Shown here piece after piece: positions 17,924 to 20,302 of a stretch of DNA of 36,231 nt. Every line of letters begins with the position of its first letter. Within the stretch, counting starts at the first letter, position 1. Source of the stretch: Coriobacteriia bacterium. GTDB taxonomy: Bacteria; Actinomycetota; Coriobacteriia; Anaerosomatales; SLCP01. The DNA is taken from assembly GCA_014859265.1 (NCBI GenBank), contig JACUUN010000013.1, positions 1-36,231 on the forward strand. Reading direction: 5' to 3'. The position numbers and the translations under genes are program-made. The notes below the pieces were generated by a model. The model ran no database searches, was not told the DNA's origin, and saw only the letters and a list, made by a program, of their open reading frames with translations.

Positions 17924-17954
17924 GGACAGTGCCGTAGTGCGACCCCTTCCCTAC
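17920..17954. terminator. Inverted repeat containing both convergent stop codons
   Basis: GTAGGGA (17920-17926) and TCCCTAC (17948-17954) form 7-bp arms with a 21-base loop. Each arm includes the TAG stop of one of the two converging genes. It is a weak bidirectional terminator candidate. Confidence 0.35.
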
Positions 17955-20302
17955 ATCGCGTGCCCGCCGAAGCGGTTGCGCAGCGCGGAGAGCACCTGTC
18001 CCGCGTAGCTCGGATTGCGCTCGGACTCCTTGCGGAACTCGAGCGCCCCGCGGATGACGCGGGCTTTCAGGCCCATCTCGTCGGCGGTGCGCACGGTCCA
18101 CTCGCCCTCACCGGTGTGCCCGACCATGCCCGAAACGCCGTCGAGCTCATCGCCGTGTAGCTCGAACGCCTCTGCAAGCCAGCCCATGAGGCGCGACTCA
18201 ATCACGCTGCCGTGTTGGTAGACGTCGGCGACGGCCGAGAGGTCGAGGTCGAAGTCGCTCGCACGCATGATCTGGAAGCCCTCGGCGATTGCCTGCATCA
18301 TCCCGTACTCGATGCCGTTGTGGACCATCTTCACGAAGTGCCCGGCCCCGTGCCCCTCGAAGAAACGGTAGGCGTCCGGCAGGGCCACATCGGCGAAGAG
18401 CGCCTCGAGCCGCTCGAAGTCCTCGCGGTTACCCCCGATCATCAGGCACGCACCGGTCCGCGCGCCGCTGGGACCCCCGCTCGTCCCGCAATCCATGAAG
18501 CGGATGCCCCGCTCGGCAAGGCGTTCGGCACGCTCGGTGGCATCGCGGTAGAAGGAGTTGCCGCCGTCGACCACCACATCACCCGGCGCGAGTAGCTCCG
18601 CGAGCCCCCCTTCACCGAAGAGCACCTGGTCGACCGGCTTTCCCGCAGTGAGCATGAGCCATATCGTCCGCGGCGGCACGAGCGCGGTCGCAAGGTCCGC
18701 GAGCGTGTATGCGCCCTCGATAGAGTCGTTCTCCCGCTCTACCTCGGCTACCTTCTCCGGCGAGCGATTGTATGCTACGACGCGCCACCCGTGATCAGCG
18801 AGGTTGAGCGCGAGGCCTGCGCCCATCTTGCCGAGGCCGACCACGCCCGCACTGCCGCGTTCGGCCGCCTGCGCGACTACCTCGGCCGCACGCTCGACCA
18901 CCTCGGCGGTGTCGGGTGCGTACGTCTCCAGCGGCACGACGCTCTCGTGCCACGCCCGGAAGACCGGGTCGATGAAGGCCCACATCGCGGCCACCTCGTC
19001 GGTGGAGACGAAGAGCGTCTGGTCGCCGTCGACCGCGTCAAGCAGCAGCTTGGCGTACTCTTCGACGTACTGGGCCTTCTCCTCCTTCTCGTAGAGGAAG
19101 AAGTCGAAGGTGCGTCTCTCGACCTCGCGGTCGAAACCCGGACGCTTCGCCCAGAACTCGATCTCGATCGACTCGGCCGGCTCGAGCTTGAAGGTGACCC
19201 GGTTCCGGTAGTGCTCCCCCCTCTCGCACAGGCACGGGCGCGGGTGCCGGAAGGTGACCACGATCTCCTTGCGCGCCTGGCCGAGGCGCTTGCCGGCCTG
19301 GAAGGTCACCGGCACGCCCACCCACCGCCGGCCGGTCATCTCGAAGCGCAGGCGGAAGTAGGTCTCGGTGTCCGAGTCCGCGTCCACGCCCTCGATGTCG
19401 CGATACCTCTCGTACTGCGCGCGGAAGCTAGTGTGGGCCACCTCCTCGGCAGTGGGCGGTCTGAGCGAGCTCACGAGCTTCGCCCGGGCCTCGCGGATCG
19501 CCGCAGCGCCACGGCTGTAGGGCTGGTCCATCGTGACGAGCGCAAGCATCTGCAGCAGGTGGTTCTGCCCGACATCGCGCAGCGCGCCCACCCCGTCGTA
19601 GAACCGCCCGCGCTTCTCGACCCCGATCGACTCGAGCAACGAGATCTCGATGGACTCGATCGCGCTGCGGTCCCATGCAGTCTCGAAGAGATTGTTCGTG
19701 AAGCGGAAGTTCAGGATGCCCTGGAGCATCTCTTTGGCGAGGTAGTGATCGATTCTGTAGATCTGCTCCTCCTGGAAAAGACTGCCGAGGAACTCGTCGA
19801 GTTCCTGCGAGGTCTGCGCGTCATCGCCGAAGGGCTTCTCGACGAGCACACGGGTCCACCCCTCGAACTCGCTGCACGCGTCGGTCAGTCCGCTCTCTGC
19901 CAGGCGCGCAAGTATCGTCCGGTAGTGCTCGGGCGGCACCGCAAGGTAGAAGAGCTTGTTGGCACAGCCACCCCACTGCTCATCGATAGTACTCAGGTGG
20001 GCCGCGAGGGCCTCATAAGCTCCGACGTCTTCGAAGGAGCCACGTACGTACGTGAAGCAGCTGACGAACCCCTCGACCTCGTCGGCGGCTGCGTCGGGGA
20101 GGCGTTCCACCAGTATCTCGCGGACACGGGCGCGCAGGTCGTCGTCACTCCAGTCGCGCCGCGAGAACCCGACGATAGCGATACGCCCCGGCAGCTCGCC
20201 CTTCCCGCCGAGGTAGAAGAGGGCGGGCACGATCTTGCGCGCCATGAGATCGCCGGTCGCTCCGAACACCGTCAGCACGGTGGGCATGCGCTGCTCTGAC
20301 AT
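17951..20302 (-). CDS. zwf-gnd: Fused glucose-6-phosphate dehydrogenase / 6-phosphogluconate dehydrogenase
   Basis: One open frame of 783 residues encodes two complete pentose-phosphate enzymes. Residues 1-460 are Zwf: nucleotide loop VFGATGDLMARK (13-23), VEKPFGDD, and the active-site RIDHYLAKE with His186. After a short linker rich in Ala and Glu (about 465-484), residues 485-783 are a short-form GndA-type decarboxylating 6-phosphogluconate dehydrogenase: VVGLGKMGAGLALN, VVDGGNSFYRDA, CGTSGGPSGARTG and GHFVKMVHNGIEYGMMQAIAEGF with Lys658. No 6-phosphogluconolactonase domain lies between them. The chain should take glucose-6-phosphate to ribulose-5-phosphate with two NAD(P)H, provided the lactone is hydrolysed. 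The ATG at 20302 has GAGAGG seven bases upstream. The gene follows serS by 85 bases. Confidence 0.95.
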   Translation of the reverse strand: MSEQRMPTVLTVFGATGDLMARKIVPALFYLGGKGELPGRIAIVGFSRRDWSDDDLRARVREILVERLPDAAADEVEGFVSCFTYVRGSFEDVGAYEALAAHLSTIDEQWGGCANKLFYLAVPPEHYRTILARLAESGLTDACSEFEGWTRVLVEKPFGDDAQTSQELDEFLGSLFQEEQIYRIDHYLAKEMLQGILNFRFTNNLFETAWDRSAIESIEISLLESIGVEKRGRFYDGVGALRDVGQNHLLQMLALVTMDQPYSRGAAAIREARAKLVSSLRPPTAEEVAHTSFRAQYERYRDIEGVDADSDTETYFRLRFEMTGRRWVGVPVTFQAGKRLGQARKEIVVTFRHPRPCLCERGEHYRNRVTFKLEPAESIEIEFWAKRPGFDREVERRTFDFFLYEKEEKAQYVEEYAKLLLDAVDGDQTLFVSTDEVAAMWAFIDPVFRAWHESVVPLETYAPDTAEVVERAAEVVAQAAERGSAGVVGLGKMGAGLALNLADHGWRVVAYNRSPEKVAEVERENDSIEGAYTLADLATALVPPRTIWLMLTAGKPVDQVLFGEGGLAELLAPGDVVVDGGNSFYRDATERAERLAERGIRFMDCGTSGGPSGARTGACLMIGGNREDFERLEALFADVALPDAYRFFEGHGAGHFVKMVHNGIEYGMMQAIAEGFQIMRASDFDLDLSAVADVYQHGSVIESRLMGWLAEAFELHGDELDGVSGMVGHTGEGEWTVRTADEMGLKARVIRGALEFRKESERNPSYAGQVLSALRNRFGGHAM

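What the first reader, a model, noticed from the sequence alone, without database searches (positions are those of the whole stretch)
17951..20302. Single-chain Zwf-Gnd fusion without a lactonase domain
Complete glucose-6-phosphate dehydrogenase and 6-phosphogluconate dehydrogenase are joined in one 783-residue frame, with both active sites intact and only a ~20-residue linker. Fusions known to me join Zwf to 6-phosphogluconolactonase, not to Gnd. This fusion skips the middle enzyme, so the unstable lactone must be hydrolysed spontaneously or by a separate enzyme between two sites on one protein.
Basis: partly seen in the sequence, partly recalled or inferred. Interest (0 to 1): 0.75.

Follow-up and report, generated by a model that had tools for sequence, protein, structure and literature searches.

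The report
Fused G6PD–6PGDH enzyme, lactonase missing

Summary
On the minus strand, window 20302→17951, one 783-residue frame joins a complete Zwf (residues 7-466) to a complete short-type Gnd (486-782) through a ~20-residue linker. It is not an assembly error: 45 of 61 genomes of the order, in 14 family-level groups, carry the same full-length frame. Single-frame fusions also occur in Patescibacteria, where unfused relatives keep zwf directly before gnd, sometimes one in-frame stop apart. Trees put the order's fusions in one clade nested inside the Patescibacterial branch, so a fused gene probably crossed phyla. Other orders of the class have neither gene. The usual lactonase family (PF01182) gave no recognisable lactonase in these 61 genomes, one a closed chromosome. 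A second copy lies beside transaldolase-Pgi and transketolase genes, again without a lactonase. The C-half carries an NADP-type N-R motif. Most likely it is a bifunctional NADPH-forming enzyme whose lactone hydrolyses spontaneously between the two steps; that hydrolysis is inferred. A G6PD-6PGD fusion was reported (and doubted) in one diatom (PMC3148214); I found no prokaryotic report.

The parts
17951..20302 (-). Fused zwf-gnd gene, 783 codons plus stop
18905..20302 (-). Glucose-6-phosphate dehydrogenase half (residues 1-466; G6PD_N and G6PD_C)
   Evidence: PF00479 3.7e-53, PF02781 1e-77; TIGR00871 444 bits; Foldseek best match G6PD 7e6h, E 1.3e-43
18854..18916 (-). Linker, about residues 463-483, modelled partly as a helix (467-477); length and sequence vary between relatives
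17954..18853 (-). Short-type 6-phosphogluconate dehydrogenase half (residues 484-783) with an N-R-S motif after beta-2 (NADP type by inference)
   Evidence: PF03446 3.5e-44, PF00393 5.1e-18; NF007161 335 bits, TIGR00872 311 bits; motif survey
16268..17923 (+). Neighbouring convergent gene: N-terminal membrane segment plus beta-propeller matching PF10282 (lactonase, 7-bladed); considered and rejected as the missing lactonase, so not part of the system
   Evidence: 41 bits, 79 residues aligned; no PF10282 match in fused genomes G004 and G007; part of a wider conserved gene block

Best explanation
[quoted passage not shown] The N-terminal half oxidises glucose-6-phosphate to 6-phosphoglucono-delta-lactone; the lactone leaves, is hydrolysed mainly without a dedicated enzyme (spontaneously), and the resulting 6-phosphogluconate is decarboxylated to ribulose-5-phosphate by the C-terminal half. 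Fusion keeps the two dehydrogenases in 1:1 ratio and close together. The gene arose by loss of the stop codon between adjacent, co-directional zwf and gnd genes of the Patescibacterial type and entered this Coriobacteriia order already fused. Shown here: the fusion, its conservation, intact motifs, the lack of the known lactonase family, and the nesting in the tree. Inferred: both activities, NADP preference of the C-half, spontaneous hydrolysis, direction of transfer.
For: Both halves exceed curated cut-offs. Full-length single frame in 45 of 61 genomes of the order, 14 family-level groups, and in 12 of 287 sampled Patescibacteria. PF01182 has no match in the own genome and exceeds its cut-off in 1 of 61 genomes; that one is a NagB-like protein beside GlmM. 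G019 is one closed 1.84 Mb contig with the fusion and no PF01182 hit. Among Patescibacteria with zwf/gnd, PF01182 occurs in 0 of 12 fused and 40 of 72 others. Rpe, RpiB and Pgi are present in 10 of 10 fused genomes checked. A second fused copy in G009 lies between a transaldolase-Pgi fusion gene and transketolase, with no lactonase near. The order's Gnd halves carry N-R or N-R-like S/T/H motifs where many NAD-type relatives carry D. Unfused relatives L172 and L044/L171 have zwf and gnd in the same frame separated by a single stop. The order's fusions form one clade (SH-aLRT 98-100) inside the Patescibacterial branch; holding the Patescibacterial-type rows together without the order is rejected (p-AU 8.5e-7). 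That the delta-lactone hydrolyses spontaneously, though 6PGL is needed for efficiency, is stated in PMC3148214.
Against: No activity is measured. The nearest unfused Patescibacterial relatives (for example G315, G419, G462, G436, G403) also lack PF01182, so the lack of the lactonase follows the lineage rather than the fusion. L038 is fused and has a separate Pgl. A lactonase of an unknown family cannot be excluded by profile searches. Cultured members of the probable order are reported to lack glucokinase and phosphofructokinase (PMC9686372), so the physiological flux through the enzyme is unclear.
Confidence: 0.6

Rival explanations
1. The fused chain itself speeds up lactone hydrolysis or passes the lactone between the sites, replacing the separate lactonase.
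For: No recognisable lactonase in 61 genomes of the order, fusion kept across 14 family-level groups, compact high-confidence model.
Against: No extra domain or insertion: 466 + about 20 + 300 residues account for the whole chain. The linker is variable. The closest unfused Patescibacteria lack the lactonase too, and fused L038 has one.
Confidence: 0.15
2. The lactone is hydrolysed by an unrecognised separate lactonase, for example a beta-propeller protein.
For: PF10282-like propellers occur in 16 of 31 genomes, in several next to the fusion gene, as in this window (16268-17923).
Against: The propeller match is partial (profile 245-330 of 344 for the window protein), the protein has a basic N-terminus followed by a membrane segment and so probably faces outwards, and fused genomes G004, G006, G007 and G013 have no PF10282 match. 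PF08450 matches are weak.
Confidence: 0.22
3. The fusion is only a neutral stop-codon loss in an operon, giving equal amounts of two independent enzymes without catalytic coupling. (Compatible with the best explanation, so confidences do not sum to one.)
For: In-frame, single-stop or overlapping zwf-gnd pairs in relatives; variable linker.
Against: Conservation of the fused state through most of the order argues for some advantage, but does not prove one.
Confidence: 0.4
4. Frame error, or two products from the frame (internal start or cleavage).
For: A GTG codon lies near the start of the Gnd half in the window gene.
Against: Same frame in 45 genomes. Several members (L019, L035, L120, L131, L133) have no ATG, GTG or TTG in the 14 codons before GLGKMG, and no Shine-Dalgarno core is conserved in position.
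Confidence: 0.03

Closest known systems
G6PD-6PGD fusion of the diatom Phaeodactylum tricornutum (Stover et al. 2011, PMC3148214)
   Same: G6PD joined directly to 6PGD without a lactonase domain.
   Different: Eukaryotic, found in one species; its authors note that a later annotation split it; that genome has a separate 6PGL and further 6PGD copies. The bacterial fusion uses the short Gnd type, spans an order and parts of Patescibacteria, and mostly lacks Pgl. The diatom sequence was not compared here.
G6PD::6PGL fusions (Plasmodium, Giardia, Trichomonas, animal H6PD; PMC3148214, PMC8399836)
   Same: Fusions of oxidative pentose phosphate enzymes including G6PD.
   Different: They join steps one and two; this one joins steps one and three and leaves the lactonase out.
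Separate Zwf and short-type Gnd (TIGR00871; TIGR00872/PRK09599) in adjacent genes of many bacteria
   Same: Same two families, both over curated cut-offs.
   Different: Many bacteria have gnd before zwf as two frames; here zwf comes first and the frames are one.
Bifunctional transaldolase/phosphoglucose isomerase (PRK09533)
   Same: Another fusion of two enzymes around the same pathway; it lies beside the second Zwf-Gnd copy in G009.
   Different: Different enzymes.

Membership tests
Glucose-6-phosphate dehydrogenase (TIGR00871) | Whole-length match over curated cut-off | tested here: met
   444.2 bits against 400.6, profile 2-467 of 486
Glucose-6-phosphate dehydrogenase (TIGR00871) | Catalytic motif RIDHYLxKE and catalytic His in QNH | tested here: met
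   RIDHYLAKE and RDVGQNHLLQ in the translation
Short-type 6-phosphogluconate dehydrogenase (TIGR00872 / NF007161) | Whole-length match over curated cut-off | tested here: met
   310.7 against 297.2 and 335.4 against 271
Short-type 6-phosphogluconate dehydrogenase (TIGR00872 / NF007161) | Catalytic motif KxxHNGIEYG | tested here: met
   KMVHNGIEYGMM in the translation
Short-type 6-phosphogluconate dehydrogenase (TIGR00872 / NF007161) | NAD+ rather than NADP+ as cofactor (TIGR00872 name) | tested here: inconclusive
   N-R-S after beta-2 suggests NADP+; no assay possible
G6PD::6PGL fusion enzymes | Lactonase (PF01182) domain in the same chain | tested here: not met
   No PF01182 match in the protein
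6-phosphogluconolactonase, YbhE type (PF10282), for the neighbour 16268-17923 | Complete seven-bladed propeller of the family, cytoplasmic | tested here: inconclusive
   41 bits but best stretch only profile 245-330 of 344; basic N-terminus and membrane segment precede the propeller

The most novel reading that the evidence does not exclude
A lactonase-free oxidative pentose phosphate pathway in which the Zwf-Gnd chain itself makes the missing step fast enough, by intrinsic lactone hydrolysis or transfer between its two sites, and which spread between phyla as a ready-made unit.
Probability: 0.15. Interest if true: 0.8.

Novelty: new variant of a known kind. Interest (0 to 1): 0.55.

Why it matters
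The pathway fusions described so far mostly join consecutive steps. A fusion that skips a step, kept across most of an order and found with no recognisable enzyme for that step, makes testable whether 6-phosphogluconolactonase is needed at all, and whether such bacteria can rely on spontaneous chemistry. It also bears on annotation, since such a gene is easily named as G6PD only or Gnd only, and it gives an example of a fused metabolic gene probably moving between Patescibacteria and Actinomycetota.

Tried and rejected
Frame error: rejected by 45 genomes with the same frame. Weak PF01182 hits in relatives as the missing lactonase: G045's is a NagB-like protein next to GlmM. The neighbouring propeller as lactonase: rejected on partial match, likely outward location and absence in other fused genomes. 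PF08450 (SMP-30) hits: weak, spread over propeller proteins. A supposed Zwf-X-Gnd fusion of 967 aa in G533: not real, six stops lie between the motifs. Tight link between fusion and lactonase loss: the 0 of 12 against 40 of 72 contrast (Fisher p 2.4e-4) is not independent of relatedness, because the closest unfused relatives also lack PF01182 and fused L038 has Pgl. Literature searches for a described prokaryotic Zwf-Gnd fusion found none in the open-access library; subscription papers were not searchable. PDB sequence and fold searches showed only the separate enzymes among the matches listed.

Full report
CHECK OF THE OBSERVATION. The gene lies on the minus strand, window 20302 to 17951. The 783-residue translation matches the G6PD N- and C-terminal domains over residues 12-467 and the 6PGDH NAD-binding and C-terminal domains over 486-762. 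Curated whole-family models are exceeded on both halves: zwf TIGR00871 444 bits (cut-off 401), PRK09599 335 bits (271) and gnd_rel TIGR00872 311 bits (297). The Gnd half is the short type of about 300 residues. The catalytic motifs RIDHYLAKE, QNH, GTSGG and KMVHNGIEYG are all present in the translation. AlphaFold2 on an alignment of 94 sequences gave mean pLDDT 93.6 and pTM 0.85 with no low-confidence stretch at the linker.

NOT AN ARTEFACT. Of 61 genomes of the order searched (own plus 60 relatives), 45 hold the full-length frame on one contig without a stop, in 14 family-level groups (counted); G003 and G009 hold a second full-length copy and G002 has two partial ones at contig ends. In several members no start codon lies in the 14 codons before the Gnd glycine motif, and no Shine-Dalgarno core is conserved in position, so a separate Gnd product from the same frame is unlikely. 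Cleavage after translation is not excluded.

WHERE ELSE IT OCCURS. The scan of named genomes found full-length matches in Coriobacteriia MAGs (61-64%) and in Patescibacteria (about 40-55%). Reading the frames, single-frame fusions are present in L039 (Wolfebacteria), L040 (Doudnabacteria), L042, L043 (Magasanikbacteria), L045 (Parcubacteria), L083 (Kaiserbacteria), L038 (unnamed bacterium) and L041 (Actinomycetes MAG), while other Patescibacteria have zwf followed by gnd as two frames and many other bacteria have gnd before zwf. A phylum sample of 287 Patescibacterial genomes gave 84 with a match and 12 with an uninterrupted fusion. In L172 the zwf stop stands two codons before the gnd ATG in the same frame, and in L171 one stop separates the two: one stop-codon loss would fuse them. 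Other orders of the same class gave no match at all in the 18 genomes listed.

HISTORY. In the Zwf tree the order's fusions form one clade (SH-aLRT 98) and in the Gnd tree likewise (99), within the Patescibacterial branch. On the concatenated set a single clade of all fusions is not rejected (p-AU 0.22), whereas holding the Patescibacterial-type rows together without the order is rejected (p-AU 8.5e-7; that group includes L038 and L041, which are not labelled Patescibacteria). The simplest reading is fusion in Patescibacteria or a close donor, then transfer to the ancestor of this order. The direction and the number of fusion events are inferred, not shown. The order is probably Anaerosomatales (OPB41), since its members group with MAGs labelled Coriobacteriia and Slackia sp.; this name was not tested.

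THE MISSING STEP. PF01182 (Pgl/NagB) has no match in the own genome and exceeds its cut-off in one of 61 genomes; that protein is NagB-like and follows GlmM. G019, a closed single-contig genome, carries the fusion and has no match. Rpe, RpiB and a Pgi are present in all 10 fused genomes checked. A second fused copy in G009 stands between a transaldolase-Pgi fusion gene and transketolase, and in G003 near a Pgi-type gene and a glucokinase-like gene, in neither case with a lactonase among the neighbours scanned. In Patescibacteria with zwf or gnd, PF01182 occurs in 0 of 12 fused and 40 of 72 other genomes. This contrast is confounded by descent: the nearest unfused relatives lack it too. One fused genome (L038) has a genuine-looking Pgl.

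THE NEIGHBOUR. The convergent gene at 16268-17923 encodes a basic N-terminus, a membrane segment and a propeller with a partial PF10282 match. It accompanies the fusion in several genomes, but as part of a longer conserved block with serS, and fused genomes G004 and G007 have no PF10282 match at all. It is a poor candidate for a cytoplasmic lactonase.

MECHANISM. Best supported: two NADPH-forming dehydrogenases on one chain, with the lactone hydrolysed between them mostly by spontaneous chemistry. The N-R-S/T/H motif after beta-2 in the order's members suggests that the Gnd half, whose family includes NAD enzymes, uses NADP+ like the Zwf half; this is inference from the known role of that loop. 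A study of the pathway's fusions states that the delta-lactone can hydrolyse spontaneously but that 6PGL is needed for efficiency (PMC3148214). Cultured members of Anaerosomatales are described as unable to use sugars and as having an incomplete pentose phosphate pathway (PMC9686372), which would fit low flux.

NOVELTY. A G6PD-6PGD fusion was reported once, in a diatom, with doubt about its annotation (PMC3148214). I found no report of a prokaryotic one in the open-access library. It is a new variant of a known kind: fused pentose phosphate enzymes.

Noticed in passing
L060:7438-9078: A Gnd::Pgl fusion (547 residues; PF03446, PF00393 and PF01182 in one frame) directly after zwf in a Parcubacteria MAG: a different fusion of the same pathway.
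   Followed up: partly
L120:3398-10801 and L116:4486-9820: Second copies of the Zwf-Gnd fusion sit in sugar-phosphate cassettes with a transaldolase-Pgi fusion, transketolase and a glucokinase-like gene; the L131 and L133 copies sit beside glutathione-reductase/dihydrolipoyl-dehydrogenase-like flavoproteins, possible NADPH users.
   Followed up: partly
window 16268-17923: Membrane-anchored beta-propeller protein next to the fusion gene in several genomes of the order; function unknown.
   Followed up: partly
class-level sample: None of the 18 genomes listed from other orders of the class has a zwf or gnd match at E 1e-20, so the oxidative branch in this order looks acquired.
   Followed up: partly
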